Origin: Terfezia claveryi
Lineage: Eukaryota; Ascomycota; Pezizomycetes; Pezizales; Pezizaceae
NCBI GenBank assembly: GCA_015179025.1
Contig: WHUX01000039.1
Location: forward strand, 248,001 to 312,000
Direction of reading: 5' to 3'
DNA length: 64,000 nt
Position 1 is the first letter of the stretch, and every line of letters begins with the position of its first letter. Positions 9,911-33,133 of this stretch are shown here, in pieces. Position numbers and translations under genes: made by a program. Under the pieces are notes generated by a model. The model made no database searches and had not been told where the DNA came from. It saw only the letters and a list, made by a program, of their open reading frames with translations.

Positions 9911-10252
9911 CACCGTCGAGTTATTTTTAATAATCCGTTACTCGCACTAAAGTTATTCCCACGTACGGCGAGACACCGCATCCCCAGAGAAGACCGGCGT
10001 TAAGCTGTCCCCAAACGAACTTGCCGTCCAAAGGCAAATATCGTGCTACAATATCAGGGACCTCTTGTGGACTTGCCCAACTGGCACTGTCCAATTTGTT
10101 ATTGAATCATTCATTACTCACATTCAAGTTATTCTAACCTACGACGAGGCACAGCATCGACCAAAGCAAGCCCGGCATATCGTCTCTCCATGGCAGGAAT
10201 TATCTGGAAGCCCAAAAGGGTTTCCAATCTATTGTGCTCTCTGGGGGTTATA
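9911..10252 (+). pseudogene. SRA-RING gene, N-terminal part (interrupted)
   Basis: Start of a broken SRA (YDG) domain gene. The sequence around 10140-10250 matches the minus-strand copy at 26150-26330. That copy, read through, gives MAGISG..KGFP and SIVLTGDYKDDVDEWDTF, aligning with the first strands of the UHRF1 SRA domain (VAGIHG, LVLAGGYEDD). Here coding continuity is lost through small indels, and a LINE-B tail breaks it at 10252/10569. The repeated phrase ATTACTCGCA.TCAAGTTATTC near 9950 and 10110 shows an internal duplication of the leader, also present three times in the minus copy. Confidence 0.7.
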
Positions 10253-10568
10253 AGATTTTTTTTTTTTTTTTGAAGTCTATACGTCTATGGAGCCTAAGGC
10301 TATGAGACGATCTCGTTCCCTAATCTTAAAAGACTCGCTACACCCACGAAACAACGGGCTGCATAAACGCCCTACCTCCCGAACCAAAGAAAAGCAGAAA
10401 TACCCCACCCTCCCCCGGCACGCCCCCTAACCGGCCTCTCCACCAAAGTTAAACATCCACCGCCACGCCCTTAACCGGCCCTCCCCTTCCTTTCCAATGC
10501 CCTCCCCTCCCCATGAGGCCTCTAAGGTCACGTGCTGATTTCCGGACCGGGTCAGGAAATCCTGGTCA
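10253..10568 (-). mobile_element. LINE-B tail inserted in the SRA gene
   Basis: A 316-bp, heavily 5'-truncated LINE-B tail on the minus strand; its poly(A) is the T-run at 10256-10271. It is flanked by GGTTATAAG at 10245-10253 and 10570-10578, the likely target-site duplication. The uninterrupted relative at 26170-26210 reads GGGGATTACAAGGATGATG across the site, which proves the insertion. The first 110 nt match the LINE-B tail at 7568-7680; the remainder is C-rich and of uncertain origin. Confidence 0.8.
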
Positions 10569-10760
10569 GGTTATAAGGATGATGTGGATGAAGGGGATAC
10601 CTTTGTTTATCCCGGCTAGAGCAGGCCGAGGAAACAAGAAGACTGGCGCACGTGTCGCCGAAGTCCAATCGTTGGACCAGACGTTGGACAAATTGGCCAT
10701 GACCATGTTCCCGGAGCTCACCGATCTCAGCAAACTGGACAAAGTCTAAGCCTGTCGGGG
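10569..10760 (+). pseudogene. SRA domain, middle part after LINE insertion
   Basis: The reading continues from the interrupted N-terminal part: an Asp-rich turn (eroded to RMMWMKGIPLF), then GARVAEVQSLDQTLDKLAMTMFPELTDLSKLDK. The segment from QS.DQTLDK aligns with UHRF1 SRA (QSCDQKLTNTNRALALNCF). It closes in a stop after LDKV and passes directly into the tandem array. Confidence 0.7.
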
Positions 10761-11800
10761 TCATCAAAAGCGACATATGCAACGAGAATGAATTCTACTC
10801 ATTATATTTACGAAGTCACATAGTTTTACCCGCGCTCAACAGGTTATGAGCCTGAAAAGACCAATGCCGCATTGGCCATGACAATGTTCCCTGAGCTCAC
10901 CGATCTCAGCAAACTGGACAAAGTCTGAGCCAGTCGGGGTCATCAAAAGCGACAAATACAACGAGAATGATATCTATTCATTATATTTACGAAATCAGAC
11001 ATGGTTTTACCCGCGCTCAACAGGTTATGAGCCTGAAAAGACCAATGCCGCATTGGCCATGACAATGTTCCCTGAGCTCACCGATCTCAGCAGCCTGAAA
11101 AGACCAATGCCGCATTGGCCATGACAATGTTCCCTGAGCTCACCGATCTCAGCAAAGTGGACAAAGACTAAGTCAGTCGGGGTCATCAAAAGCAACAAAT
11201 ACAACGAGAATGATATCTACTAGTTTTACCCGCGCTCAACAGGTTATGAGCCTGAAAAGACCAATGCCGCATTGGCCATAACAATGTTCCCTGAGCTCAC
11301 CGATCTCAGCAAACTGGACAAAGTCTAAGCCTGTCGGGGTCATCAAAAGCGACATATGCAACGAGAATGAATTCTACTCATTATATTTACGAAGTCACAT
11401 AGTTTTACCCGCGCTCAACAGGTTATGAGCCTGAAAAGACCAATGCCGCATTGGCCATGACAATGTTCCCTGAGCTCACCGATCTCAGCAAACTGGACAA
11501 AGTCTGAGCCAGTCGGGGTCATCAAAAGCGACAAATACAACGAGAATGACATCTATTCATTATATTTACGAAATCAGACATGGTTTTACCCGCGCTCAAC
11601 AGGTTATGAGCCTGAAAAGACCAATGCCGCATTGGCCATGACAATGTTCCCTGAGCTCACCGATCTCAGCAAAGTGGACAAAGACTAAGTCAGTCGGGGT
11701 CATCAAAAGCAACAAATACAACGAGAATGATATCTACTAGTTTTACCCGCGCTCAACAGGTTATGAGCCTGAAAAGACAATTGCCGCATTGGCATTTACA
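10690..11800 (+). repeat. Higher-order tandem array from an SRA segment
   Basis: Seven or eight copies of one SRA-derived unit lie head to tail. The anchor CCGCATTGGCCATGACAATG starts near 10868, 11047, 11110, 11267 (with one change), 11446 and 11627; relatives are near 10694 and 11785. The spacings are 174, 179, 63, 157, 179, 181 and 158 bp. Units differ by type (GAATGAATTCTACTC, GATATCTATTC, GATATCTACTAG) and the type order repeats twice, so a block of roughly 520-575 bp was itself duplicated. Each unit encodes NAALAMTMFPELTDLSKLDK and KSDKYNEN plus an AT-rich spacer ending in CGCGCTCAACAGGTTATGAG. Stops make the array non-coding. Confidence 0.9.
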
Positions 11801-12345
11801 TGTTTCCGGATCCCAGCAAACTGGACAAAGCAGGAGCCGAGTCCAGTGACTGGAAAAAGTCCAAGCCAGTTCGCGTCATAAGAAGCGACAATATGCGCCA
11901 TAGCAAGTATGCCCCAACGGAAGGTTTTAGATACGGCGGTATCTATAAACTGGTGCGCTATTGGCCAGAAAAGGGCAAGGACGGGTTTGTGACGTACAAG
12001 TACCAGTTCAGGAGGGACGATCCAAGCTCCAGCACCATGGACCGGAGAGGGGGAAGCGAGGGCAAACAGGAAGATGATGAGTGGGAGGAGGAAGAGGAAA
12101 AACCCCTTCTCCAAAAAACGTAAACAGGTAAATAAGAACTCCAAAACGTTCGAGCCCGATTTCCGCTTACGAGAATTGATAGATCTAGGCGTGGCGAGCA
12201 GGCCAGTCTGGCATAACGTCCTTTCTCATAATGAGAACTTAATCGAGTTCATCCAGGAAGTCCTGGGACAGTTCACATGCCCGTTTTGTTCCGGAATACC
12301 CTGGAAACCATGATCCCTGAAGCCAGCATTTTCTACGTTTAGCAT
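11770..12345 (+). pseudogene. SRA domain C-terminal half plus start of RING
   Basis: Well-preserved second half of an SRA (YDG) domain. The open frame 11800-12123 reads [45 protein letters not shown] and [20 protein letters not shown]. In UHRF1 the same blocks (KPVRVVRN, SKYAPAEGNRYDG, YWPEKGKSGF, RYLLRRDD) form the pocket that reads hemimethylated CpG by base flipping. The YDG triad is changed to YGG here. After a frame change, 12074-12313 gives an acidic-basic linker, PVWHNVLSHNENL and FTCPFCSG, the first two cysteines of a RING finger. The rest of the RING is lost at a junction with the next copy. Confidence 0.85.
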
Positions 12346-12399
12346 CAGATTTACCTGTGCTCACAAGAGGCTTCTGTCACCCCGTCTTCCTATACATAT

Positions 12400-13345
12400 C
12401 AGGTTAAAGAGCCTGAAAAGACCATTGCCAATGCATTGGCAATCAACATGTTTCCGAATTTAACCGATCCCAGCAAACTGGACAAAGTCCAAGCTGGTTC
12501 GCATAATAAGAAGCGACAAAATGTGCCATAGCAAGTATGCCCCAACGGAAGGTTCTAGATACGACGGTACCTATAAACTGGTGCGCTATTGGCCAGAAAA
12601 GGGCAAGGACGGGTTTGTGACGTACAAATACCAGTTCAGGAGGGACGATCTGGCTCCAGCACAATGGACCGAAGGGGGGAAGCGAGGGTCGAGGACCTCG
12701 GCCAGGATGGTCTGCCCAGGGGGCAAACAGGAAGATGATGAGGAGGAAGATGCCCCCCCAAAAACGGAAACAGGTAAATAAGCACTCCAAAACTTTCGAG
12801 CCCGATCCTCGCTAACAAGAATTGATGGAACTAGACGTGGCGAGCAGACCAGTCTGGCACAATGTCCTTTCTAGTAGCGAGGACTGAATAGGGTTCAACC
12901 AGGAAGTCCTTGCACCGTTCACATGCCTGTTTTGTTCCGGATACCCTGGAGACCCTGTGGCTTTTCTATGCAGGCATTTGGTTTACTAAGATTGCCTGAA
13001 GCCAGAATTTTCTACGTTTGGCATCAAATGCCCAACATGTTGGACAACACTCGATGGATTCCAGGATGATTGGGGCAACCTGGGCGTCAATTTGGAGTTA
13101 AAAGCGATTCTGCTATATCTTGATCATATGTATGATGGGGCGCCTCGGGAATACTAGGATGTATGGTTATTACATAGCTGCTAGCTCTGAAAGCATTTTC
13201 TGTGCTTCTTGCTATATACTATATATTAGCTTTGAATTGAGATTGGGATCGGCTCATCGATCTTTTTCTGGCTTCGCCCTATATATCATACCATATATTA
13301 GCTTCGAATTGAACTTACATTTGGCTTATGACAATGTTCTGTCCT
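12400..13345 (+). pseudogene. SRA C-terminal half with complete RING relic
   Basis: The most informative copy of the family. After KTIANALAINMFPNLTDPSKLDK, the open frame 12521-12781 carries [18 protein letters not shown] with the YDG triad intact. The linker and PVWHNV follow, then a readable RING finger at 12910-13060: FTCLFCSGYPGDP, FLCRHLVY, a stop, DCLKPEF and GIKCPTCW. The order C-x2-C, C-x-H, C, C-x2-C is that of a C3HC4 E3 ubiquitin-ligase RING, as in UHRF1/VIM proteins. A conserved tail (GVNLELKAILLYLDHMYDG) ends near 13130; non-coding 3' sequence shared with 22567-22985 runs to about 13340. Frameshifts and one stop in the RING make it a pseudogene. Confidence 0.85.
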
Positions 13346-13499
13346 GCCCGGGAATGCAAAAATGAAATTCCTCCCCGGGAATGCGATAACCAAATGTAGT
13401 AATTTAGTGAAGGTACACGGAAGTGAAAAATGAGTTAAAAAAAAATATAAAAAAAAAAAGGAATATAAAATACATCAGCGCATACAAATATGAATTGTA
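13345..13499. other. Short A-rich non-coding stretch
   Basis: Begins just past the SRA unit with a pair of CCCGGGAATGC phrases (13349 and 13375) about 26 bp apart, then A-runs at 13437-13460. No gene seen. Confidence 0.4.
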
Positions 13500-14360
13500 C
13501 TCAATAATGTATATCACTATGTTTCCTTATCAGTACCGGCGGACATGGATGGTTACTTAGTAATGAAACGTTACCATGGTCCTCCAAGTCTTCTTCCAAG
13601 TCTGCTTCAAAGTCCTCTTCCAAGTCCAATTGCGACTCTGTATCTTGGTCGATACAATTGTTCAAATGCGTTTTGTTCCTCCGTCTCGAGTACAATATAA
13701 GGTGGGTCGAGATAACCTATATCATTCCTTTTTGTTTTCGTCTTTGAACTAGTTCTTCTCCCTCATACAGGATCTCGAATGTCTTTGATATCTAGAGGGT
13801 TGCAGTTACAGTCCAGGTTCATAAGAGTTATGACCAGAGTGTTATTTTGATCTGCTTGATGTAAGCCGTGTAGTTAGCTGGAATATGGTTGGCTGTTGAG
13901 TAGAATTGGAAAAGGTTCTCAAGGGTAATCCAAGCTTGTCTTGCAGTCATGTCGTCCGTCAAAGATAACTGAGTTTCTGGTTTGCATCGAAAATAAATCT
14001 CCTAAAATGTCCACTTATCAGCTTTCTCCCAACTGACGTTGGGGTCATGGGTCGATCGTGGTCAATAAAATCAAGATACGCATGTTCTTTTCTCCATATT
14101 CCATAATTACAGTTGTTGAGCAGTTCGAAATCTAAGGGTTTACAGTGAAGAGTTTTAGGATGTCTAAGTCCTCCATGAACGTAGGAGGTGGAGTTAAAGG
14201 TGAATACGGAGAGGAAATCTTTTGAGTGTAGGAAGGGCTCCTTTTAGATATAGATCTGTATCGATCGTGTGGATGATACAGGAGGTGCTCATAACCTGAT
14301 AGAACGTGTAGGTCATATTCCTGGATGTTCGTCTGATAATCTCCCAGGAACATCATCGAG
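13500..14360 (-). pseudogene. Copia-type gag relic
   Basis: Read on the minus strand with frameshifts, this gives NCNYGIWRKEHAYLDFID near 14060-14120, then LTDDMTARQAWITLENLF near 13900-13960. This is the pattern of the gag-polypeptide (UBN2-like) region of Ty1/Copia elements, where NY.IW..M and TA..AW..L are conserved. The downstream open frame 13501-13695 is strongly acidic (repeated DLEEDFEADLEEDLED) and corresponds to a TTCCAAGTC microrepeat at 13583-13628. The upstream frame 14132-14356 may be the N-terminus. No zinc knuckle, integrase or LTR was found, so only a gag fragment survives. Confidence 0.55.
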
Positions 14361-14554
14361 CTCTATTTAACATGATGCCAGGCCCGCTAGTGTATCCTAG
14401 ACCACGATATAATCTGAGTTTTCAAAACTCAGTTTAATAATTGACAGCCCCTACTATCAATCCTAAGTTTCCGACAGCATTGCTACCGTTATCTGTGTTG
14501 GCTAGCACTTGTCAGAACGGGACTGCTCTCTCAGAAATTAACAGAAAGAAGCTC

Positions 14555-14720
14555 AATTCCGACAATACCCTGCGGGACGAGCCCACTTGGTCGATATCAA
14601 CAACCAGCGGGTCTCCAATGTCAGAATTTACAGCCAACTAAGAGAGAAGGAGAAGCTGAGCAAGAACATCTGATTTTTGCCAGAAATACCTGAGAACTAC
14701 AGGTTCTAATTTGAAGGAAG
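14555..14720 (+). repeat. Dispersed repeat D, copy 1
   Basis: A segment of about 150 bp containing GACGAGCCCACTTGGTC, ACCAGCGGGT, GAGCAAGAA and GCCAGAAATACCTGAGAACTA matches 60190-60440 on the same strand, including the trailing GAGGTTCTAATTTGAAG-like phrase. No coding frame is conserved between the copies. Confidence 0.7.
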
Positions 14721-14969
14721 GGTAAAAAGGGCAGAGGCCGGAAAACTGGCGGTTCTCAACGCCAGTTACTCGTGCCTAACAGGGGTTCCCCTTGGCGCCT
14801 TCGTTCTCACTACTAGCTCTCTGCGATCGCCACACAACAGAAAGTTTACTGAAGCAGAAGAGCTGGCAGCTTACAAGTATATTGATCACCTTGATAAAAT
14901 AAGACTTTCTGCTCGCCTTCCTATGATTGCGCAAATTCTATTTTAAGACGGAATCACACCAGCGACAAT

Positions 14970-15400
14970 GATCCACCACCGCTGACTGAAGTCCGCCTAA
15001 CACAAAAGATCCTCACAGGTGAAGATGGATGAAAAGCCGCTCCACAGCGGCAGAGGCGGAGTAGGCAGAGGTGGAGTAGACAGCGGCAGAGGCGGAGTGG
15101 GCAGAGGCGGATTAGACAGCGGAGGAGGCAGCGACAGCGGCGGAGGAGACAGCGGCGGCGATGGTGGAGGAGATAGCGGCGATAGCGGCGACGGTGGAGG
15201 AGACAGTGGCGGCGGTGGTGGAGGAGATAGCGACAGCAGCGGAGGAGGCAGCGACAGCGGGGAGGAGACAGCAACGGCCAGGGAGGAGGCAGCGACAGCG
15301 GCGGAAGAGGCAGCAACAGCGGGGAGGAGATAGCGGCGACGGTGTAGGAGACAGCGGCGGCGGCGGAGGAGATAGCTGTAAGATTACGAGGTTATTAAGC
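14970..15400 (+). repeat. Gly/Ser/Asp-codon repeat, plus-strand copy
   Basis: A GC-rich, triplet-phased repeat built from AGCGGC and GGAGGA units follows a unique lead of about 65 bp (AGTCCGCCTAACACAAAAG). One frame (15019-15333) reads as repeated SGRGGVGRGG, DSGGG and SGG after MKMDEKPLHSG. The other frames give Glu/Ala- or Arg/Gln-rich strings, as any such repeat would. An inverted copy with the same lead lies at 29290-29725. Its three-base phase and shared ATG suggest a once-coding low-complexity tail, but no flanking domain supports a function. Confidence 0.75.
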
Positions 15401-15450
15401 GGAGGAATCGTGAAGAGAATTGTGTGTGTATATTCAAATAGAGAGAGAGC
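15380..15450 (+). repeat. Dispersed repeat E, copy 1
   Basis: TGTAAGATTACGAGGTTAT, GCGGAGGAATC, GAAGAGAAT and GTGTGTATATTCAAA recur in the same order at 30320-30400 on the same strand. Here it directly follows the Gly/Ser repeat. At 30320 it stands about 600 bp beyond the inverted copy of that repeat. Confidence 0.7.
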
Positions 15451-15559
15451 TATCTAGTTATTAGAGACTTTTCGCACCCTGGTCTGGCGGCTTGTATCAC
15501 AGCAACCCGACCATATCATGTGAGCAGCAAGGATATGGGACCAGGGTGAGATATTCTAA

Positions 15560-15597
15560 GGGCAAAAAATATGCTATCGATAGCATATTTTTTGCCC
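15560..15597. repeat. Perfect 38-bp palindrome
   Basis: Two 19-bp arms with no spacer: GGGCAAAAAATATGCTATC followed at once by its exact reverse complement. The centre reads ATCGAT. No ORF crosses it in a meaningful way. Long perfect palindromes are unstable in most genomes, so an intact one suggests recent origin or a hairpin-end or terminal-repeat junction. Confidence 0.95.
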
Positions 15598-15599
15598 GG

Positions 15600-16320
15600 C
15601 TCATGGTATCAAGGGTGCTATGGTCAATGATCATAGCCCAGGCCTCACTGCTGAGGCCAAAGAGGTCGGGTAAATCCTGTAAGAGGTCGGGAAACTCATC
15701 ACAGTAGGAGAAGTTAGACGCGTTGATATCTGAGGGAGACCCCGAGAGTCGTTGGGTTGTGAATCGCTATCTCCGTCATGTGACATCTTGATGGCTGGAA
15801 TAGCTGGTGTAAAGTGGAATATAAAGCTGAAGCCTGGCTAGTAGAATGCAACTTCAGGGGTGGATAGTACTTTGGAATACAAGACCCCTGCACGAGCGAC
15901 TGGGGCATATTATGTCCGATATTGTATCCAGCTATAACGACGATGGGAAGGAATGCTCCATTATTTTTTGTTTAAAAATACCCTGAAAAAATTAAAATAA
16001 AATAAAAATAAAAAAAATAATGTGATGGCTTGGATTATGGTGGAAAACGTACTGGCACATGTTGCATATTTTTTTCTTCTTTTTTCAAAATAGTCAGGTC
16101 GTAAATGTTTAAGCAACAAATATCCCATATATATTGGAAATTAACAAACTCAAACACGAGATTCACCTCAATCAAGCCTATTTTGCCCCTCACGGATTGA
16201 AAAAAGTAAGGATAATATACAGTAATTTGATGTATGTATGATTATAGACACCAAGGAAAAAAAAAAAATTGTGGGAAAGGGTGAGGCGACAGGATTTCAA
16301 AAGTTTTGACACAACAAGCA
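15600..16320. other. Unassigned AT-rich stretch
   Basis: No gene recognised. Holds A/T simple sequence at 15990-16020 and 16255-16270. Short frames have no familiar motif. Confidence 0.3.
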
Positions 16321-16321
16321 C

Positions 16322-16930
16322 TCATTGCAATGGTCGGTTTGCAAGCTTTCCTAAAGGCATCATCAGATTGGTTTTTGGGGAACACCGGGAGTCTTTACCT
16401 TCAAGTTCTTTTATCCGTTGTCCTTGATTCATAACCAACCCCTCAAGGTATTTGATTCGTGCATTGCTCTGTCTCTGCCATATTGTAGAACTTTGATTCA
16501 TCGCTTCCAGGTAGGGATACAGGGTCTCCTCGAGATCTGTCACCCGCTCGGCGATAGAGCTTGTAACGGGGATGGTGGAGCTGTCGTCCAGGTGGTTGAG
16601 TCCGGTGATGTGGATCCATCGTCATATGCCTCAAGATTCGTGGTAGAGGATAAAATTTGAGTTGTAGCAAGGGAAGCCTATAGAGGGTTCAGTCAATTGC
16701 GCAAGATAATTTTGGATTCACATTACCTCAGCCCTGTCAGCCGTACTACCATCCACTTGTGACTCGTCTGGAAGGGCATCGTGATCCCCATGTAATCGAT
16801 CCCCCCAAGCACGTTCCTGTCTCCTGTTACGCAATTGCGTACATTCCCTTTAAAGACCGTACCAATAGTTTGATCACCGGTAACCCAATTATTGATAGTC
16901 GGCCGATGTTGCCTTTGCAATGAAGCACGG
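16322..16930 (-). pseudogene. Hypothetical protein: Gly/Asn solenoid-like segment plus coiled coil
   Basis: Two open segments on the minus strand look like parts of one gene. The upstream segment (16723-16920) contains two imperfect repeats, NNWVTGDQTIGTVFKG and NCVTGDRNVLGGIDYMG, with periodic Gly, Asn and Val as in small beta-solenoids. The downstream segment (16322-16600) reads TDLEETLYPYLEAMNQ then ARIKYLEGLVMNQGQRIKEL, a likely coiled coil. A possible 49-nt intron (donor GAG/GTAATG, acceptor TATAG near 16676) lies between. A Ser/Thr/Pro-rich frame then needs one frameshift near 16560 to join the coil. I do not recognise the family. The solenoid-like repeats recall fungal NLR-associated or amyloid signalling motifs only in general character. 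Confidence 0.35.
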
Positions 16931-16938
16931 CGAGATAA

Positions 16939-18200
16939 CTAAGATCCTTCGTTTAGCATTTTACCTCCGCGGACCAGCCCAGGTTGGCCGCTTCGCCAAG
17001 CGTGCAAGCTCGGTGAGGTAGTGGCCAATAGTCTAAACTCTCGCAGGTTTGGGGGCACCGGTAGGGCGCATCTCACCGTGCATAGCAGAGTCGGTGGACT
17101 ATCCTCGCGGGCTTTTCTCGGTAGAATGATCGTCCGCAACATTGTAGTCATCCTCGCGACCCATTCCTGGTAGAGTAGACAATAAGGGGGGGTTCACTAA
17201 CATAATCCAGCTGCAAGCTTGCAAATAGCTTCAGGTCCTTATGAACCGCATATTGCTTTAAGTACTCCAAACACTCTCGCCAGCATTCTTTAACTGTATG
17301 TTTGTCGCGGTATTGTGAATCTGACCTAATATATTCATTGAATCAACCATATTGCCAAGGTCCTCCGCTGCGTACTTTCTTACCGCACAGGTGAAAAAAT
17401 ATTTCAATGGAAAATTAGGTGCTCGGGAGGAGATACTTTTAGGTGCATATCCATGTTGTGCATGGAAGAATAAAAGAAAAATTCCAAGTACGAAGGTAAT
17501 GAGGTTATATATACTTCCAGCCCCTCTGCGAGGGGTAGTGCAACCAGACTACTTCCAGCCTCGAGCAGCCGCTAACCAGACTAAGCAGCCGCGATACGAT
17601 CGCTGAGTTAGGTGTGTTGGTCATCGTTATGTCATCATCATCATGCAACGTAATAGGGGCGCCTGCCATTTCATGCTAGACAGTCACTTTTTAAGACATC
17701 CGCCTCCTTGAATCTTCAAACCACATTGGCATAGCAGGTACCATTAATTCTTTGCTTATCTCTTAGCCTCGCCAACGTATCATAGGTAAACTGCACCTGT
17801 GGCATGCAGGGCTAAGAATGCTATTCTTAGAACCTAGCAGTAGGGTCTTGGCATAAGACTAATTCTTAGCTTACCTGCAGGGAAAAATGGAAGATAGAAT
17901 CTGATAAGAATATAACTTACGATAGAGTCACGTGACGACGTCTTTAATCAGGTGGGCTTTTAAGACACCCGCATCTAGTATCACGTAACGATCGCCACCC
18001 ACGTGATGATCGGCATGAGTGTCCTCCCGATGTAGTATGCCTGTCATGAGAATATTGGATACAGCCTAAAAACACTCGAAAAATCCAAATTTCATATCAT
18101 ATATATATATATATACGTATCTATACATATATACAGTAGTGTTCGGGATGCATAAAACTGGGCGCGTCTATGAGTCCGGCTTAAATAAATAGTAGTAGAA
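16939..18200. other. Unassigned stretch with two terminal-repeat motifs
   Basis: No gene is supported. Two copies of the AACCAGACTA motif (17542-17551 and 17574-17583) belong to the dispersed terminal-repeat family described at 49979-50493. The first is preceded by the small hairpin CCCCTCTGCGAGGGG at 17521-17535. An (AT)n microsatellite lies at about 18097-18130. Confidence 0.4.
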
Positions 18201-18289
18201 ATATATGGAACAAGAGGAAATTACAAAGATATACTTTGACATCATGAACTTCTATCATCAATCCCTTATTCATTCTCCGTGCGCTTTCG

Positions 18290-18840
18290 TTAGGTCTCCT
18301 CTCGTGATCGAAACTTTTTGGCAGTACCGTAATCTCGTATGCCATCTTTCCCAAAAAGGGGTCGCATGGAAATGGTGTGCTTTCGTTTGTCTTGCGCTTC
18401 GGATATCTTCGAACTTAAAGGCAGCGTCATGACCATCTTGACCCTGTGAGAGAACAGGTCCAATACCCGGCTGAATGGATACAATGACCGAGTCGACTGT
18501 TCCATGATGTCTTGAACTCCACAGGCAGAATCAAGGACTCGGTCTCGATGTCATCCATGCCAGTGCTGGAGTTAAAGGAGTCCTTGCTTCGGATGACAAT
18601 GGAGGGGTCGACAGTGATGACAATGTTTCCGGATTTGATTTGCTTAGATTCAGGAATCTTTGATGCTGCTCGGAAGACATAACCCAACGAGGGCTACGAA
18701 GGTGAATAAGACTTGATGCATTTTGTTTTTAAACGACTGTTGCAGGTATGCTGGGGTAAAAAAGAAAAAGAAAAAATCGGGGACACAGTGGGCTTGAAAT
18801 GATATTTCTAGAGAGCGTCCTGAAACGAGTATTTCCACAA
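18290..18840 (-). pseudogene. Possible relic of a small secreted protein
   Basis: On the minus strand MHQVLFTFVALVG near 18722 looks like a signal-peptide start. A neighbouring frame continues as a good-quality stretch (IKSGNIVITVDPSIVIRSKD) to 18427, and a third frame carries 18290-18505. At least two frameshifts would be needed to join them. No family recognised, and chance frames are not excluded. Confidence 0.25.
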
Positions 18841-19300: not shown

Positions 19301-19307
19301 CTTACCC

Positions 19308-20255
19308 TTACCATTTCCGGGTCCTGGGGTTGGTCGGATAAGAGGGGGGATGGTGTTGGGCTCGTGGTGGTGGCCGAGTTGTAGATTGCCGGGTGGTGTT
19401 AGATGCTGCCTCTGCGCCCGTGCGTGCTTGGGGAAGGTCAGTGTTGGTCGAGGCGCTGCTCCCTGTTGTCGTCTTTTGTGGAGGTGTCTTTCTGAGGGTT
19501 ACCACTTCCTCCCTCAGCTTGTCATTCACCTCCGCTAACCGATCGCATTCCTCTTTCAACCGATCCAGATCCGTTTGCATTTGGCGGACAATAGGGGGGG
19601 AGGTCGGAGGTGTGATTAAAACCTTCACATGTCTCTTTTGCGGCCTTTCAAACCTGGCTAAGGTCTTCATTCATTATAATCTTTAGAATCCCTCTCAAAC
19701 TTCCTGGGGACTCCGTCGACAAGAAAATCCCATTCATCAATTGGTGTCCCAGGTTTAGCAGTGTATTTCTTAATCGGAAGAGACAATTCCAGAGTTTTGG
19801 GAAGCGCAATAGGGACAGAGCTCTAGTATCAACCGTTTCATTGTCGCTTTCATCTCCGTCTGAAATTTCCGGAGGAGGGGTAGAGTCTATGCTTGCATCG
19901 TTTCCTATCCATCGAGGGATGGTGGCTTGTGGGGACGGTGTCTGTGCTCCGTGACTAATATCCGTGTCTTGTGTGGTGGGTTTCGCCGATTCATCTTTCC
20001 CAGATTCTCCTTTCTCTTTCCCTTGCCTGGCAGGTCGTTGGCTGCGTTGCTTGCAGAGTGTTGACCAATCAATAGAGTAGTATGCGAGTTCCCTCTCGGA
20101 TCTAACCAGTTCTTGATGTACGATGTGAGCAGGCGATGTGAGCGGCCAAGGAGATAGGTGGGATAGGAGGTGTGGGGGTAATCTTGGTGACTGGAGCGAT
20201 CTGAGGGTGTTGACGTGGCGGGAAGTCGATACGGTGCGGTCGAGAAGAATCCCAT
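19308..20255 (-). pseudogene. LINE ORF1 (gag-like) relic, minus strand
   Basis: Homologous in order to the relic at 4401-5613. The N-terminal open segment (19905-20255) ends with KRKENLGKMNRRNPPHKTRI then LVTEH, paralleling KRKNNPEKI and PPYKTRLPVT there. A middle segment near 19680-19760 gives PGTPIDEWDFLVDG, matching GPPGRDIDEFDF. The last open segment (19308-19670) adds a predicted coiled coil (DRLKEECDRLAEVNDKL) and a Thr/Pro-rich tail. This copy preserves the coiled coil that is poorly seen in the other. Multiple stops occur between 19670 and 19905. Confidence 0.6.
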
Positions 20256-20399
20256 GGTATTGTGAGGATTTAAGGATGAAAGCCAGAGGAAAAGTATGAT
20301 AAGAGGTCGCTGAGGTGAGTTTGGAATATGAAGGAGAGCTCGCCGAGCTCTATCTATTAATACTCTTTTGAGGTAGGGGGACCCAATGCCCTGGAGTTA

Positions 20400-21230
20400 T
20401 GAACCCGAATGTGTTGGAGAGCCCGTGCTGGTGGTTGATGAGATCTTGCCTCGATTGCTGCTGTGATCTTAGTAAAGCCAAACCATTTTAAGATAGTTCT
20501 GGAGGACTGATATAGACCTGAGGATATTCTCTCTTTAGCTTTTTCACATTATAGCATCATCCTATAGATGGCCTCCAAGCTACCTTGACGAGCATTGGAA
20601 GTCAGAGTATGGAGGCGCCCCCAATTGATCTCAAATCCATTTAAGATGGATGGGACGGATCCAAACTTGCAGCCAGAGTGTTAAGGGCATATATTTAATG
20701 AATGAAGAACAGAGGTGAGTTTTTATATGAGGTATGTCTTTCGGAGATATGTCCAAAAGCTGTGTGAGATCTGTGTCTCATATCTCCGGCATAATTGGTT
20801 AGAACCCACTTTAATCAACAGAAGTAACGGTTCTGTTCTAATCTGCTTATTGGAAGCAAAATCTGCCGCTGATGCACCCAAGAGAGGTTGATATCTGTGA
20901 ACCACCACCTCAGTGGCGTCGAGGGCATGAAATACCATGAATATCTGTTGTGCCCATTTCTTGGAACCTTCCAAGATGGCAAGTCTTTCAGTTTTTATGC
21001 TGGATTTAAAGTCTCGAGAGGCAGCCCGTGCAACTTGTGCAGCTAGTGAGGGAAGGTTGAGGTGGTCTTGCCGTGGAGATATGCACTGTATCTTCACAAT
21101 CGTCATCAGCGTCAATAGGATTGGAGGTCGACGAAAAACTCCCAGGGAAAGATATCGAGTTGAGGGTCTGGCTGCTGCAGACATTGTGATTGGTGTGAAG
21201 CTCCGAGCGTTTTGGAGTAAACATAAATCT
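20400..21230 (-). pseudogene. Copia-type gag relic
   Basis: The open frame 20723-21184 reads TERLAILEGSKKWAQQIFMV followed by FHALDATEVV and later ETQISHSFWTYLRKTY. This resembles the Copia gag domain pattern (leading LEGS..W, then a late TA..AW..L..Y helix). An upstream frame (21006-21224) with Ser/Thr- and Asp-rich sequence is probably the N-terminus. Downstream, frames to about 20400 still look protein-like (SILNGFEINWGRLHTL, SSRTILKWFGFTK). No zinc knuckle or pol was found. The gag call is moderate because the match is by pattern only. Confidence 0.5.
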
Positions 21231-21309
21231 TTTAATGATATACGTTAGAACTGTGACCTTCTGCCTTATTAACTTTCATAAATTTATTAGTGGTATATTC
21301 AATCAATCA

Positions 21310-21545
21310 GAGGTTCTGTGCACTTACTCTAGGAAGTAGGCCACAAACCCCGTCGACTGAAAAGCATGAAAGTAAAAAGGGACAAATTAGAGCAAACATA
21401 ATAGAGAGGTAGAGGTTGGGCTTTACTAGTTAATTGAGAAGGAGGAGGTAAGAGTTGTTTGTATCGCTTTTCTAAACAATTGTGCGTGCCAAGATTTCTA
21501 TGCTTTGTTTGCCATGCCCAGATTGCCATGCCTTGAAAAACAGGT
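21310..21545 (-). repeat. Eroded copy of the SRA-family upstream unit
   Basis: Shares ordered phrases with 9185-9540 and 28460-28800: GTCGACTGAAAAG, GAGAAGGAGGAGG, GTGCGTGCCAAG and CATGCCTTG. It stands alone, with no SRA sequence beside it. Confidence 0.5.
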
Positions 21546-22010
21546 GTTACTCTAGGGAGGGTTTTCCCTGCTAAAAAATCTGGTTCAATTCCAGCTTATT
21601 TTCAGCCCATGGGTGTGGTTTATCCTGGCTATGAGAATGAAATACTGGACTATGTGAGATCGTGGACATCAAAGACATTTGATGGATGGAATTGCATACG
21701 ATGTGTTATTGTTTGTTCTTTTGTATTATAATGTGCCTACCTCGGAATACCTATGGGGTAAGCCGGGCAGTGTTGCACGATTAACCAATATATTTTAAAT
21801 CAATTCACAGAAAGGAACATCAGCGGGGGGTCTAGAGTAGAGCTGTAGCAATATGTCTACTATAGCGTACGCAAGTTGACAGTAGACCGCAAAGTGCACT
21901 AAGTAGTAGTGAACGATGTAGGTGAAGACTTGCTTAATTCCTCAAAACAATACGTGTCCAGAGCATTGTCTATATGAATAAAGTTCAGGGTAAGTTGATG
22001 GGCAGGGGTA
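21546..22010. other. Unassigned stretch
   Basis: No gene, RNA or repeat recognised. Confidence 0.3.
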
Positions 22011-22017
22011 AGTATGT

Positions 22018-22210
22018 TATTCAGCCAATCAGAAGCAAGAGAATACAAAGATTGCAGGTGGCGCCTCTGAACCCGGGGTGCAACGAGAGTGACTCAATCT
22101 GAACATACGTAGGATATTCGCGTATGGGCGAACGTAAGGTGATTGCGTGTGCGCGTGGTGGCGGTACAGATTGAGCTGAATATTATGTTTCGGCGATATC
22201 GGCGATGGCG
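22018..22210 (-). repeat. Dispersed repeat F, minus-strand copy
   Basis: Reverse complement of elements at 59860-60180. It shares TTCTCTTGCTTCTGATTGG, a GAGTCACTC phrase, and the CACGCGCACACGCAATCACC / CCTTACGTTCGCCCATACG region. The CTTCTGATTGGTTGAATA phrase also occurs alone at 61197-61215. No coding content. Confidence 0.6.
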
Positions 22211-22566
22211 GCGATAACACATAGCGGCTGTTGGGTAATATTCGATGCGTAGTACGTAGGTAGTAATCATTCAAGCAAAGCGGGAGTAAAATTTCCGAAT
22301 ATTTATCTTGCTTTGCCAGTCAATTCCAATGCAATCATTGTGCAATCAGAAGCGGTTTGTATATCTGTTATGTGGATGCACACTAGCGCAGTACGAGCAA
22401 ATGTCGCCTTTTTTCAGAACTATTGGATTTGTGCTTTGGGAGCTCATGCTAAGGAAACATGGGAAAGACTCTGCGTGTCAGAGGAAGGATATTTCTATTG
22501 ATAGACTAAATCGTATCATACAACACCATACAGAATACAGACTTTCACGATTTTCTCAGATGTTAA
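22211..22566. other. Unassigned stretch flanking the SRA cluster
   Basis: No supported gene. An 87-codon frame at 22308-22571 has no motif. The SRA repeat unit appears to end at about 22566, by comparison with the plus-strand end near 13335. Confidence 0.3.
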
Positions 22567-22965
22567 CATAAGGCAAACCCAACGTCAATTAGAAAGCTAA
22601 TATATGGTATGGTACATAGGGGAAAGCCAGAAAAGAATCAATAAGCCGGTCTCAGCCTCAATTCAAAGCTAATACATAGGAACCCAGAAAAACTTTTCAG
22701 AGCAAGCAGCTATGTAATACACCCTCCATCCTAGTATTCCCAAGGTGCCCTATCATATCTATGATCCATAAGGCAAACCAATGTCAATTGGAAAGCTAAT
22801 ATATGGTATGGTACATAGGGGAAAGTCAGAAAAAAATCAATAAGCCGGTCTAAGCCTCAATTCAAAGCTAATACATAGGAACCCAGAAAAACTTTTCAGA
22901 GCAAGCAGCTATGTAATACACCCTCCATCCTAGTATTCCCAAGGTGCCCTATCATATCTATGATC
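22567..22965 (-). repeat. 200-bp tandem duplication at the SRA unit 3' end
   Basis: Two direct copies with a period of exactly 200 bp (22567-22766 and 22767-22965), differing at a handful of bases. Each contains AAAGCTAATATATGGTATGG and ends with CCTATCATATCTATGATC. They are the 3' non-coding end of the SRA-RING unit. The plus-strand copy (13130-13340) has only one full version, so the duplication arose after the units separated. Confidence 0.9.
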
Positions 22966-23540
22966 AGGGTATAGCAGAATTGCCTTTAAGTCCAGATTGA
23001 CGCCCAGGTTCGTACAGTCCATCGAGTGTTGTCCACCATGTTGGGCATCGCACAATGAGAAAGGACGTTGTGCCAGACTGGCCTGCTCGCCACGTCTAGA
23101 TCTATCAATTCTCGTAAGCGGGGATCGGGCTCGAGAGTTTTTGAGTTTTTATTTACCTGTTTGCGTTTTTGGGGGGCCATCTTCCTCTTTGCCCCCTGGG
23201 TAGACAATCCTCAGGCAGAGTTCCTAGACCCTCGCTTCTCCCTCTTCGGTCCATTGTGCTGGAGCTGGATCGTCCTATCCTGAACTGGTATTTGTATGTC
23301 ACAAACCCGTCCTTGCCCTTTTCTGACCAATAGCGTACCAGGTTATAGATTCCGTCATTATCTAAAATTTTCCGTTTGCGCATATTTGCGATAACGCATC
23401 TTGTCGCTTCTTATGACGCGAACCGGCTTGGACTTTTTGTCCAGTCACTGGACTCGGGTCATGCTTTGTCCAGTTTGCTGGAATCAGTTAAGTCCGGAAT
23501 CATGGTGATTGCCAATGCGGCAATGGTCTTTTCATAACCT
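22966..23540 (-). pseudogene. SRA C-terminal half, RING deleted
   Basis: Reading on the minus strand: [13 protein letters not shown] near 23430, a degraded YDG region, GRSEG linker and [13 protein letters not shown], ending RPVWHNVLSHC then PNMVDNTRW (22986-23207). The segment between the first RING cysteine pair and the final CPTCW-like stretch is missing compared with 12910-13060, so the RING was removed by an internal deletion. Tail sequence VNLDLKAILLYPDH still follows. The acidic linker before KKRK is shorter than in other copies. Confidence 0.75.
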
Positions 23541-23880
23541 GTGAAGGACGTTATGCCAGACTGGCCTGCTCGCCACGTCTAGATCTATCAACTCTCGTAA
23601 GCGGGGATCGGGCTCGAACGTTTTGGAGTTCTTATTTACCTGTTTACGTTTTTTGGAGAAGGGGTTTTTGCTCTTCCTCCTCCCCCTCATCATCTTCCTG
23701 TTTGCCCTCGCTTCCCCCTCTCCGGTCCATGGTGCTGGAGCTTGGATCGTCCCTCCTGAACTGGTACTTGTACGTCACAAACCCGTCCTTGCCCTTTTCG
23801 GGCAAATAGCGCACCAGTTTATAGATACCGCCGTATCTAATCCTCGACCCTGGCTTTCCCCTCGTCGGTCCATTGTGCTG
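23541..23880 (-). pseudogene. SRA C-terminal end and linker fragment
   Basis: A partial copy joined head to tail to its neighbours. It contains the Tyr-Lys-Tyr-Gln-Phe strand and MDRRGG..EG linker in shifted frames, then [19 protein letters not shown] and RPVWHNVL, where it stops abruptly against the next copy at about 23540. The junction sequence (CCTGTGAAGGACG) shows a direct recombination between two units. Confidence 0.7.
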
Positions 23881-24180
23881 GAGCCGGATCGTCCCTCCTG
23901 AACTGGTATTTGTACGTCACAAACCCGTCCTTGCCCTTTTCGGGCAAATAGCGCGCCAGTTTATAGATACCGCCGTATCTAAAACCTTCCGTTGGGGCAT
24001 ACTTGCTATGGCACATTTTGTCGCTTCTTATTATGCGAACCAGCTTGGACTTTGTCCAGTCACTGGACTCGGCTCCTGCCTTGTCCAGTTTGCTGGGATA
24101 AGTTAAATTCGGAAACATGTTGATTGCCAATGCATTGGCAATGGTCTTTTCAGGCTCATAACCTGTTGATCGCAGGTAAA
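23837..24180 (-). pseudogene. SRA C-terminal half, well-preserved frame
   Basis: A 97-codon frame reading [51 protein letters not shown] and [19 protein letters not shown], then PAPAQWTDEGKARVED. The last phrase matches the UHRF1 SRA end (DEPGPWTKEGKDR). This is the longest uninterrupted stretch of the C-terminal half on this strand. Its YDG triad is YGG. It is cut off by the junction with the fragment at 23541-23880. Confidence 0.8.
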
Positions 24181-24440
24181 AATATGTGATTAAGATATAA
24201 TAAGTTGATGTAGTTCTCGTTGTATTTGTTGCTTTTTATGACTCGGACTGGTTGTCCAGTCACTGGGGCTCGGGCTCCAAGCTTTGTAGTTTGCCGGGAT
24301 CGGTTACTCCGGGAACATGGTAATGGCCTTGATCTTGTCCAACGTCTGGTCGAACGATTGGACTTCAGCGACACATGCGCCAGTCCTATTGTTTACACAG
24401 CCTGCTCCAGCAACTTGCAAACTCCACTTTCGCTAATCCA
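24181..24440 (-). pseudogene. SRA middle segment
   Basis: The minus-strand reading gives GACVAEVQSFDQTLDKIKAI, TMFPE, then DWTTSPSHKK and the AT-rich spacer ending in the ATCAACAGGTTATGAG-like phrase that separates units in the tandem array. It is continuous with the next C-terminal half, the normal unit order. The N-terminal half is missing and replaced by unrelated sequence. Confidence 0.7.
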
Positions 24441-24880
24441 AGAACAAGGTACACTCCTATTCCCGATCAACAGACCCCTTCAAATAGGCCACGCCAATTG
24501 AAATACTCATTGCATAATAGTAACTCCCGAGTAGAACATCCTCCTTGAACTCCCAAAATCCAATATCTCACCAAATAAACTGGGCTATGCATCCAGGGGA
24601 GAGCAGTCCAGTCCAGAATTGTCCAGTCCAAACTCGCCCCAAAATATATGCTGAATTTTAAAATTGGATCGAAGGGGTAACCAAATCCCATAAGTGAAGT
24701 ATCATTCAATTATTCCCCTGGATCCTCCTTACTGCGAATTAAATGTAGGATCGGTTTCTTCCGCATACCTACCACCTCCCCAATCTGTTAGTCTCGTGTC
24801 AACCTAGACTAATAGCTTTATCCAGGGATGTGGTGTCTTGCCTGGCTTAGAACAATTTGAATGCGAATAATAAATTATTT
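24441..24880. other. Unrecognised insertion between SRA fragments
   Basis: Replaces the expected SRA N-terminal half. An 80-codon minus-strand frame (24467-24709) with several Trp residues has no known motif. AATGCGAATAATAAATTA at about 24860-24877 resembles the leader repeat of the SRA unit, so the unit leader resumes there. Confidence 0.35.
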
Positions 24881-25280
24881 AAAAAGAGAAAAAAGGACAG
24901 TCCCCGTTGCGTAAGTTCTTAAAGATGCCGGTGTCCAGAAAAGTGACTTCCTCGACCCTCGCTTCCCCCTCTTCGGTTCATGTTGCTGGAGCAGGATGGT
25001 CCGTCTTGAAATGGTATTTGTATGTTGCAAACCCGTCTTTCCCCTTTTCCTTTTCCTGGCGAATAGCGTACCAGTTTATAATTCCGTTGTATCTGAAACC
25101 TTCGTTGGAGCTCACTTAGTATGGTGCATTTTGTCGCTTCTTATGACGCGAACTGGCTTTGACTTTGTCCAGTCAGTGGACTCGGCTCCTGCTCTGTCCA
25201 GTTTGCTGGGATAGGTTAATCCTTAATTGCCAATGCGGAAATAGTTCTTTTCAGGCTCATTAACCTGCTGAGCGCAGGTA
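24880..25280 (-). pseudogene. SRA C-terminal half, frameshifted
   Basis: Contains the ordered DNA landmarks of the C-terminal half (TTTGCTGGGATAGG, GACGCGAACTGGC, GTATCTGAAACCTTCG, CAAACCCGTC). Frameshifts break it, so only short runs of the protein pattern can be read. At its C-terminal end it is fused directly to a piece of the unit leader (24860-24950), a join not seen in other copies. Confidence 0.65.
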
Positions 25281-26640
25281 AATTTGATGCTAAACGTAGA
25301 AAATGCTGGCTTCAGGGACTCTTGGCATGCATTGAAAAGTCAGGGTCTCCAGTGTAAACGGGCATGTGAACTGTCCCAGGACTTCCTGAATGAACTCGAT
25401 TAAGTCTCGCTATGAGAAAGGACGTTTAGCCATACTGGCCTGTTCGCCACTTCTAGATCTATCATTTTTCGTAAGTGGGGATCGGCAGGAAAGTTGTGGA
25501 GTTCTTATTTACCTGTTTACGTTTTTGGGGGGGCATCTTCCTCCTCATCATCTTCCTGTTTGTCCCCTGGGCAGACCATCATCAGGCGGGTTCCTCGACT
25601 CTCGCTTCCCCCTTGTCGGTCCATTGTGCTGGAGTCGAATCGTCCCTCCTGAACTGGTACTTGTACGTTACAAACCCGTCCTTTCCCTTTTCTGGCCGAC
25701 AGCGCCCCAGTTTATAGATACCGCCGTATCTAAAACTTCAATTGGCGAATATTTGCTATGGCACATTTTGTCGCTTCTTATGACGCGAACTGGCTTGGAC
25801 CTTTTCCAGTCACTGGACTCGGCTCCTGCTTTATCCAGTTTGCTGGGATCGGTTAAATCCGGAAACATGTTAATTGCCAATGCGGCAACTGTCTTTTCAG
25901 GCTCATAACCTGTTAAACGCGGGTAAAACTACGTGATTTCGTAAAAATAATAAGTAGTTATCATTCTCGTTGTATTTGTCGCTTTGATGACCCCGACTGG
26001 CTTAGTCTTTGTCCAGTTTGCTGAGATCGGTGAGCTCGGGGAACATGGTTATGGCCAATGCGGCATTGATCTTGTCCAACGTCTGGTCGAACGATTGGAC
26101 TTCGGCGACACGTGCGCCAGTCTTCTTCCTTACACGGCCTGCTCTAGCTGGAATAAACAAAGGTATCCCATTCATCCACATCATCCTTGTAATCCCCAGT
26201 GAGTACAATGGATTGGGAAACCCTTTTGGGCTCCCAGATATTCCAGCCATGGAGGGACGATATACCGGACTTGTTTCAGCCGATGCTGTGTCTCGTCATA
26301 GGAATAACTTGAATGTGAGTAATGAATGATTCAATAAGAAATTGGACAGCACCAGTTGCGCAACTTTTCAAGATAGTGGCATGATGTTTGCCTTTGGATG
26401 GCAATTTTGTACATTGGGAACAGTACAGCACCGGCTTGTTCTTGGGATGTGTTCTCTCTCTCGTAGTAGGTTAAAATAGGTTGAATGCGAGTTATGAATT
26501 TAAATCGGAATTTGAAAGTGGCACGATTTTTGCCTTTGGACGGCAAGTTCGTTTGGGGACACCTTATTGCCGGACTTGTTCTGGTGATGCGGTGTCTCGT
26601 CGTACGTGAGAATAGTTTTAGTGCGAGTAATGGATTGTTA
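25281..26640 (-). pseudogene. Longest SRA-RING copy of the minus-strand cluster
   Basis: It includes, in transcription order: three leader repeats (about 26640-26290); the SRA N-terminus (MAGISGSPKGFP; in another frame SIVLTGDYKDDVDEWDTF, matching the UHRF1 VLAGGYEDDVDHG strand); GARVAEVQSFDQTLDKI; a duplicated middle segment with the ATG-rich spacer; KPVRVI-type sequence and a C-terminal half near 25640-25740; then the Lys-rich linker. The RING start (TTCACATGCCCG near 25365) survives but the RING is shortened. Stops and frame changes are scattered throughout. It gives the best view of the ancestral order: leader, SRA, linker, RING. Confidence 0.8.
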
Positions 26641-26960
26641 AAAATAACAGCACAGGCGCTTTCCCCTCTCGGTCGGCCGGTATTTGTATCTCACAAACCC
26701 ATCCTTGCCCTTTTCTGGCCAATAGCGCACCAGTTTATAGATACCGTCGTATCTAAAACCTTACTCGCCATGGCGCATTTTGTCGATTCTTAATACGCGA
26801 ACTGGCTTTGATTTTGTCCAGACCACTGGACTCGGCTCCTATTTTGTCCAGTTTGCTGGGATCGGTTAGCTCCGGCACTATGGTAATGGCCAGATTGGCA
26901 ATGGTCTTTTCAGGAGCATAACCTGTTGAGCGCAGGTAAAAAAATGTGATCTGGTAGATG
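26641..26960 (-). pseudogene. SRA C-terminal half fragment
   Basis: The minus-strand reading EKTIANLAITIVPELTDPSK then LDKIGAESSG, followed in other frames by the YDG region and the [18 protein letters not shown] equivalent of [13 protein letters not shown]. It ends at 26660, next to the leader of the 25281-26640 copy, so two units abut. Confidence 0.7.
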
Positions 26961-27034
26961 CAACGTAATGTAACGGCGTGGACTGTAGCGTGGACTATGA
27001 ATGTGACTCTAGGGAGCGCACGTGACGTTGACCA

Positions 27035-27225
27035 AACTATACCCCACTAGCGTGGTATAGTTTCAAGTTGCTATATCGGGGTGGTTGATCAGGCTTGAGC
27101 CTTTTATAGTAGCGTAGACGTAGAAGACAAAGACGTGGACAATAGCGGGCGTGGTTGATCAGGCTTGAGCCTTTAATAGTAACGTAGACGTAGAAGACAA
27201 AGACGTGGACAATAGCGTAGACGTA
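27035..27225. repeat. 70-bp tandem duplication
   Basis: GTGGTTGATCAGGCTTGAGC starts at 27081 and again at 27151, so a unit of 70 bp ending AAAGACGTGGACAATAGCG is present twice with two differences. A related ACGTAG phrase begins a third, partial unit. It separates two SRA fragments and has no coding sense. Confidence 0.85.
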
Positions 27226-27239
27226 AGGCAACTTGTATT

Positions 27240-28130
27240 GAGAGCTAGTAACAAGTAAATGAAGTTCTCATTGTACTGCTTCTTTTTCGATAGTGGTCTC
27301 GGATTTAGCCTTATGTCCTTTCTGATGGGCAGTAATATATTCCTTCAAATTTCTGGCTGCATCATCGTAGGTATGATAATTTGTCCTAATATTTTCAACA
27401 ATATTGGTATAATAGGGTGGTAGGGATCTAGTAGGAATTCGGTTTTGACTTGGTCGGAATTGGACAAAGCTAGCAAGCCCTGCATCTTTGGTGAGATCTC
27501 CTCTTTAAATAGTTCCTGCAAAAATATTCCTAGTTTTTTTATATATGGTAATATGGTTTGTAATGTTTGATTGTCGGGTCGTCAAAGGACTGTATAGAAG
27601 GCCATCTATTAACTCCCAAGAATGGGAAGATGGCAACGACTACATTTAATGTTTGGTCAGTAATTGGCAAGGTGGAATAGTCAAAGTTATCTCCTTCATC
27701 CGCATCATCTTTGTACCCTTCAGAGAGCACAATAGATTGGGAACCAGTCTTTGGGGTTCCAGATATACCAGCCATGGAAGGACAATCTGCTGGAGGGATG
27801 CCATTGGTCCTTCGTCATATGTTGGAACATGAATGCGAGTAATAAATTACTTTAGAAAACTTGCACAGAGCTGGTTTCGGGAGTTCTTAAGGATGCCAAT
27901 AACAAGAGGCCCACGACGTTTGGCTTTGTACAGCATATGCGTATTATTTTAGAGAACGCCATTTGCACAAGCCCATAAGGTTGCCAGTGTGAAGAAGGGT
28001 GAGGCCCACGAAATTGTGTCACGACGTTTGCCTTTAGACGGCAATTTCGTACATTGCCATACCGCACTTGTTCTGGGTGCGTTCTCTCGTCGTAGGTTAG
28101 AATAACATCAATGCGAGTAATGGTAGTTGG
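27240..28130 (-). pseudogene. Divergent SRA N-terminal half
   Basis: A 78-codon frame (27539-27775) reads MAGISGTPKTGSQSIVLSEG then YKDDADEGDNFDYS. It is the clearest SRA N-terminus in the window and aligns with VAGIHG and AGGYEDDVDHGNFFTYT of UHRF1. Downstream on the same strand, two overlapping frames at 27290-27500 look protein-like (LKEYITAHQKGHKAKSETT; FKEEISPKMQGLLALSNSDQ). They have no counterpart in the other copies, so this copy belongs to a diverged subfamily. Leader repeats lie at 27830-28130. The C-terminal half is missing. Confidence 0.7.
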
Positions 28131-33130: not shown

Positions 33131-33133
33131 AGT

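What the first reader, a model, noticed from the sequence alone, without database searches (positions are those of the whole stretch)
9911..28130. Amplified UHRF1-like SRA-RING gene family, dead and rearranged, in two opposite clusters
At least ten fragments on both strands carry SRA (YDG) blocks ([36 protein letters not shown]). One copy (12400-13345) continues into a readable C3HC4 RING, the same order as the methyl-CpG reader and E3 ligase UHRF1. Seen directly: the motifs, duplications and breaks. Known: SRA reads hemimethylated CpG and its RING supports maintenance methylation. Inferred: a DNA-methylation reader gene was captured or amplified like a repeat in a methylated, transposon-rich genome, perhaps as an arms race with transposons or simply by recombination. 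A functional founder copy should exist elsewhere in the genome.
Basis: partly seen in the sequence, partly recalled or inferred. Interest (0 to 1): 0.78.

Follow-up and report, generated by a model that had tools for sequence, protein, structure and literature searches.

The report
Dead array of UHRF1-like gene fragments
A desert truffle carries, besides one intact gene for a DNA-methylation reader, a local cluster of broken and rearranged partial copies of that gene; the cluster looks like an old, now non-functional duplication array that a sister species also has, and nothing seen here shows that it does anything.

Summary
The genome is the desert truffle Terfezia claveryi (inferred). About 21 partial copies of its SRA core lie in six clusters on both strands of one 92-kb block, C323:184.6-276.8 kb. 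The window holds clusters E (9132-13334) and F (22350-28795). The only other copies found are on C455, a near-identical duplicate of this locus.

The block is dead today. No profile match contains the start of the SRA domain; 17 of 19 core copies have a frameshift or stop; copy-private changes fall evenly on codon positions (159:185:177). There is no RIP signature. Array-specific junctions also occur in Terfezia boudieri proteins, so the array is older than that species split.

Against the simplest story, variants shared by several copies favour third codon positions (16:24:46, p=0.0002), so early copies may have been functional or refreshed from the intact gene.

Best reading: a local DNA-level copy, amplified by tandem and segmental duplication, then decayed. 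Dispersal 'like a repeat' and an arms race are not supported. A small-RNA role is untested.

The parts
9132..10254 (+). Cluster E, 5' module: array-specific sequence shared with other clusters, with a PHD-end remnant at 10061-10099 and the founder-like stretch nt 758-834 at 10179-10254
10255..10568 (.). SINE-like insertion inside the SRA sequence of cluster E, beginning with a T run and flanked by a 9-bp direct repeat (10246-10254 and 10569-10577)
   Evidence: sequence read; 45 matches from 40 scored of 436 candidates, the insertion itself included; cluster D aligns through this point without it
10569..10742 (+). Cluster E, continuation of SRA module (founder nt 826-1010)
10692..11738 (+). Tandem array of about 181-bp units (5.6 copies) holding founder nt 943-1010 and array-only junction sequence
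11771..12350 (+). Cluster E copy 1: SRA C-terminal half, linker and start of RING, with frameshifts
12411..13334 (+). Cluster E copy 2: SRA C-terminal half, linker, broken RING (about 12924-13046) and 3' flank
22350..23048 (-). Cluster F: RING end and 3' flank pieces, with a 199-bp tandem duplication at 22567-22965
23049..25898 (-). Cluster F: five SRA-core copies (23049-23533, 23544-23840, 23841-24151, 24945-25216, 25282-25898) and a fragment at 24242-24403
26009..26911 (-). Cluster F: SRA module nt 758-1010 (26009-26261), array-specific 5' module pieces (26186-26500, 26518-26648), SRA-core copy (26679-26911)
27674..28795 (-). Cluster F: further SRA fragment (27674-27786) and 5' module (28001-28795)

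Best explanation
The two clusters belong to a local pseudogene array, non-functional today. Shown: the pieces derive from a UHRF1-type PHD-SRA-RING gene whose intact version is on contig C1. Shown: clusters share array-only left and right junctions where these ends survive, and T. boudieri proteins share array-only junction words. Inferred: a DNA copy of part of the gene, landed beside new flanks, was multiplied by head-to-tail duplication (units of about 181 bp and 600-700 bp), by copying of whole clusters and by inversion, and the copies have since decayed without selection in a region with many transposon remnants. Left open: whether the first copies were already broken, or were functional, or were refreshed from the intact gene for a while.
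For: Local: unit probe hits only C323, C455 and C1. Broken: 17 of 19 core copies carry a frameshift or stop, the other two are short; none of the 26 PF02182 matches on C323 and C455 includes profile positions 1-23; the missing SRA start (founder residues 181-217 region) was not found by a dedicated search of C323:160-322 kb; 1 of 5 full-length RING copies keeps all eight zinc ligands, by my reading. Neutral recent change: copy-private changes 159:185:177 over codon positions (p=0.36), still even with single-copy changes only (105:125:107) or with cluster D dropped (140:150:155). Shared origin: left junction shared by A, C, D, E, F; right junction shared by A, B, D, F; array-only word TGYEPE at 16 places in C323:160-322 kb and not in the 10-kb founder locus, also in T. 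boudieri P0125, P0127, P0139. No RIP: C>T per site CpA 0.025, CpC 0.028, CpT 0.026, CpG 0.042.
Against: Total mismatches to the founder are strongly third-position biased (322:425:839), and so are variants shared by three or more aligned rows (16:24:46, p=0.0002; 12:16:41 without cluster D; 13:20:35 on the 21 core copies, p=0.004). Restricted to variants where the founder base is the majority it is 11:19:25, p=0.07. A purely dead single-copy origin would not predict this. Fixed array-founder differences (5:6:18, p=0.004) lose significance without cluster D (4:5:12, p=0.07). The array has survived in two species, which a dead array need not do. No expression or methylation data were available.
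Confidence: 0.8

Rival explanations
1. The block began as a small family of functional UHRF1-like paralogues, or was repeatedly refreshed from the intact gene by gene conversion or new copying, and only later died.
For: Shared variants favour third codon positions (16:24:46, p=0.0002). In 26 columns the founder base is found in a minority of copies (2:8:16 over codon positions, p=0.003), as later copying or conversion from the living gene would give.
Against: Every cluster whose left end survives (A, C, D, E, F) shares the junction that removes the SRA start, and T. boudieri P0123 shares the frameshifted reading across it, so the ancestor of those 5' ends was broken early. The 26 columns are scattered over 18 of 21 copies without clear strata.
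Confidence: 0.3
2. The array is a source of small RNAs, or a pairing partner for premeiotic homology-dependent silencing, that tunes the intact UHRF1-type gene in trans.
For: Clusters on both strands; 345 founder 21-mers match C323:160-322 kb exactly and cover 742 of 2131 bases of the gene and 3' flank; Argonaute at 2 loci, Dicer-dimer domain at 2 loci, RdRP at 3 loci; survival in two species; MIP, such a process, is described for Ascobolus immersus (PMC13297926, passage).
Against: Exact matches are what any 85-93% identical duplicate would show; no RNA or methylation data; opposite clusters are kilobases apart, so no tight hairpin (E and F are 9 kb apart); only a mild CpG excess of C>T.
Confidence: 0.04
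3. The SRA-RING gene was captured by a transposon and spread as a mobile element.
For: Transposon remnants surround the block.
Against: No copies of the unit outside C323, C455 and C1; the array's 5' module has only four short matches (44-71 bp) on other contigs; no TET/JBP or KDZ match on C323.
Confidence: 0.03

Closest known systems
UHRF1 (parent gene's family; PHD-SRA-RING methyl-CpG reader and E3 ligase)
   Same: The C1 gene has PHD, SRA and RING in the same order and aligns to PDB UHRF1 chains in all three domains
   Different: Array copies lack the SRA start and most carry frameshifts or stops; the C1 model has no Pfam ubiquitin-like domain, unlike P0007 of Kalaharituber
Tandem or segmental pseudogene arrays (birth-and-death gene families; general knowledge)
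   Same: Local, head-to-tail and inverted partial copies, decayed, with an intact parent elsewhere
   Different: Parent is the maintenance-methylation reader; nested repeat scales (181 bp, 600-700 bp, whole clusters); shared with a sister species
KDZ transposons and TET/JBP genes of fungi (recalled; PMC13297926 passage mentions transposon-encoded TET/JBP in Pezizomycetes)
   Same: A DNA-methylation-related gene in many copies in a fungal genome
   Different: Those matches are spread over other contigs and absent from C323; the SRA array is confined to one locus

Membership tests
UHRF1-type protein (C1 gene) | SRA domain, complete | tested here: met
   PF02182 positions 1-146 of 148, 153.3 bits
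UHRF1-type protein (C1 gene) | PHD finger before SRA | tested here: met
   PF00628, 39.2 bits, cut-off 24
UHRF1-type protein (C1 gene) | C-terminal C3HC4 RING | tested here: met
   PF00097, 28.2 bits, cut-off 21
UHRF1-type protein (C1 gene) | N-terminal ubiquitin-like domain | tested here: inconclusive
   Not among the precomputed Pfam domains of the 647-aa model P0001; its N-terminus was not compared further
UHRF1-type protein (C1 gene) | Binds hemimethylated CpG and ubiquitinates histone H3 | not testable with these tools
   Needs biochemistry
UHRF1-type protein (array copies) | Complete SRA in an open frame | tested here: not met
   0 of 26 matches on C323 and C455 include profile positions 1-23; 17 of 19 core copies frameshifted or stopped
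Pseudogene array | Recent changes without codon-position bias | tested here: met
   159:185:177, p=0.36; single-copy only 105:125:107, p=0.34
Pseudogene array | No selection since the array formed (older shared variants) | tested here: inconclusive
   16:24:46, p=0.0002, against; 11:19:25, p=0.07, for variants with the founder base in the majority
Transposon family carrying SRA-RING | Dispersed copies in the genome | tested here: not met
   51 matches, all on C323, C455 and C1
RIP-mutated repeat | C>T excess in one dinucleotide context, CpA in Neurospora (recalled) | tested here: not met
   CpA 0.025, CpC 0.028, CpT 0.026; CpG 0.042, a mild excess
Small-RNA-producing locus | 20-25-nt RNAs from the array | not testable with these tools
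   No RNA data held; only exact-match potential counted

The most novel reading that the evidence does not exclude
The array is kept because its transcripts feed RNA silencing, or its DNA pairs before meiosis with the intact gene, so that the level of the methylation reader depends on a decaying mirror of itself: a homology sensor for maintenance methylation shared by desert truffles.
Probability: 0.04. Interest if true: 0.75.

Novelty: new member of a known kind. Interest (0 to 1): 0.27.

Why it matters
It shows that the gene for the maintenance-methylation reader can itself seed a long-lived pseudogene array, and it warns annotators: several proteins of T. boudieri (P0122-P0125, P0127, P0139) and one of T. 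claveryi (P0126), some named YDG-domain or hypothetical proteins, look like pieces of such an array rather than genes. The intact gene, in a genome that also has a DNMT5-like enzyme, makes desert truffles useful for asking whether DNMT5 works with a UHRF1-type adaptor outside Cryptococcus, which PMC13297926 calls unknown (passage).

Tried and rejected
Transposon capture: disfavoured. RIP or heavy methylation decay: no CpA bias; CpG observed/expected 0.80 in both founder and array majority. Retrocopy: the gene part concerned has no intron in the founder, so intron loss cannot be judged; no poly-A follows the three printed right junctions (A, D, F), so a DNA copy is preferred but not proven. C455 as an independent locus: unlikely, as its 21.8 kb match C323:268978-291097 at 99.1-99.2%; 13 of 6409 aligned bases differ in the array and 22 of 15579 outside, with 85 gap runs. 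The protein tree with relatives was poorly supported and is not used. In the right-end alignment the B segment was wrongly placed and does not align; B's right junction is seen, about 0.6 kb further on. NCBIfam: 0 hits for 4 proteins. Of 55 open frames of 170 aa or more in C323:160-322 kb, 16 were scanned with Pfam. Literature: the listings (several show only the top 10-15 of many) name no paper on this array; PMC13297926, PMC10538959 and PMC13152902 were seen as passages only; the Terfezia genome paper PMC7898904 is not held.
Full report
IDENTITY. The window is C323:248001-312000 of a 72.6-Mb, 794-contig assembly. The intact SRA gene lies on C1, 1,125,574 bp long; a protein labelled Terfezia claveryi by NCBI, on a contig of that length, is identical to it over the 541-aa query (P0001). 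A second T. claveryi-labelled protein, P0126, lies on a 393,670-bp contig, the length of C323. I take the genome to be the desert truffle T. claveryi.

OBSERVATION. PF02182 gives 28 matches at E<=1e-3: 20 on C323 (7 in the window), 6 on C455, one each on C1 and C157. The C1 gene finds copies in six clusters: A 185.2-188.1 kb (+), B 212.9-217.4 (-), C 231.0-234.0 (+), D 242.4-245.1 (+), E 258.2-261.3 (+, window 10.2-13.3 kb), F 270.4-275.8 (-, window 22.4-27.8 kb). With the 5' flank shared among clusters the block runs from about 184.6 to 276.8 kb. C455 (21.8 kb) matches C323:268978-291097 at 99.1-99.2% and is a duplicate of this locus, perhaps the other haplotype.

FOUNDER. C1 holds a 577-aa open frame with PHD, SRA (profile positions 1-146 of 148) and RING, each over a curated cut-off, aligning to PDB UHRF1 chains in all three domains. 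NCBI's 647-aa model adds an N-terminus; no ubiquitin-like domain is listed for it, whereas P0007 of Kalaharituber has one. The second SRA gene, on C157, has an SRA and no other Pfam match in its 436-aa frame.

DEAD TODAY. Of 44 aligned stretches, 19 span the SRA core by the script's rule; 17 of the 19 have a frameshifting gap or in-frame stop, and the other two are clean but short. A looser rule gives 21 core copies, 85-93% identical to the founder. None of the 26 matches on C323 and C455 includes profile positions 1-23; a dedicated search did not find the SRA start in C323:160-322 kb. By my reading, 1 of 5 full-length RING copies (cluster B) keeps all eight zinc ligands, with stops and frameshifts around it. 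Changes found in one or two copies are even over codon positions (159:185:177, p=0.36; single-copy only 105:125:107; without cluster D 140:150:155).

EVIDENCE THAT CUTS THE OTHER WAY. Total mismatches to the founder are third-biased (322:425:839); part of this is the founder's own constrained change counted in every copy. Fixed array-founder differences are 5:6:18 (p=0.004), 4:5:12 without cluster D (p=0.07). Variants shared by three or more rows are 16:24:46 (p=0.0002), and 12:16:41 without D; 13:20:35 on the 21 core copies (p=0.004); 11:19:25 (p=0.07) where the founder base is the majority. So the copies may not all have been dead from the start: early functional paralogues, or refreshing from the intact gene, remain open.

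JUNCTIONS. Left of founder nt 758, clusters A, C, D, E and F share an array-only sequence instead of the SRA start. On the right, founder homology stops near nt 2107, 376 bp after the last sense codon, in A, D and F; beyond it A, B, D and F resemble one another over about 30-160 bp, B with its junction about 0.6 kb further on. Inside, the word TGYEPE, absent from the 10-kb founder locus, occurs at 16 places. T. boudieri proteins carry it too (P0125 twice, P0127, P0139), and P0123 has the same frameshifted reading across the left junction as cluster C. Of six T. boudieri proteins found, five lie on a 156,192-bp contig and one on a 1.30-Mb contig. The array is therefore older than that split. 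No intact T. boudieri gene is among the 120 best listed (of 698) or (of 451); this may be annotation. The fragment search (8 hits among 13 candidates) gave Terfezia only.

GROWTH. Cluster E has 5.6 units of about 181 bp. Larger head-to-tail units carry SRA and part of the RING. D and E share 2.1 kb at 93%. Later events: a SINE-like insertion in E with a 9-bp flanking repeat, absent from D, and a 199-bp tandem that differs between C323 and C455. Unequal exchange and segmental duplication are inferred from this anatomy.

NOT RIP, NOT A DISPERSED FAMILY. C>T rates: CpA 0.025, CpC 0.028, CpT 0.026, CpG 0.042. A 1.6-kb probe matched C323, C455 and C1 only. The 18 TET/JBP and 9 KDZ matches lie on other contigs. 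Of 16 open frames scanned out of 55, seven match transposon-type domains above cut-off, so 'transposon-rich' rests on a sample.

POSSIBLE ROLE. Methyltransferase matches lie at three loci; the one on C457 matches PDB 7r76 at E 2e-238, named there DNA repair protein Rad8 and recalled by me as Cryptococcus DNMT5. Labels RID-like for C290 and DIM-2-like for C312 are recalled impressions, untested. Argonaute, Dicer and RdRP matches exist, and 345 founder 21-mers match the block region exactly. Trans-silencing is possible but has no positive evidence.

VERDICT. The family, its source and the predicted intact founder are right. Repeat-like spread and an arms race are not supported. This is a conserved, now non-functional local pseudogene array, with its early history open.

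Noticed in passing
10255-10568: SINE-like element beginning with a T run inside the SRA sequence, with a 9-bp flanking repeat; 45 genome matches from 40 scored of 436 candidates.
   Followed up: partly
L019, L026, L027 (C455, 21.8 kb): Whole contig duplicates C323:268978-291097 at 99.1-99.2%, with one 199-bp unit where C323 has two (window 22567-22965): probably a second haplotype.
   Followed up: partly
L021:3880-5187 (C157): A second intact SRA-containing open frame (436 aa) without other Pfam domains, unrelated to the array.
   Followed up: no
33080-35371: 764-aa open frame with a fungal protein kinase domain (PF17667, E 1e-55); a weaker APH match lies at 52611-53207.
   Followed up: no
38684-41597 and 7867-8310: LINE-type remnants: reverse transcriptase and RNase H domains, and a further RNase H piece.
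   Followed up: no
15044-15376 and 29310-29658: Two compound 21-bp-type tandem repeats of similar make-up in opposite orientation, flanking cluster F.
   Followed up: no
genome-wide (contigs C701, C645, C490, C26 and others): 18 TET/JBP matches on 18 contigs, 7 with stops inside; 9 KDZ transposase matches, 7 with stops inside.
   Followed up: no
L024 (C457): Long open frame (2180 aa) with a cytosine methyltransferase domain, matching PDB 7r76 at E 2e-238, DNMT5 by recall.
   Followed up: partly
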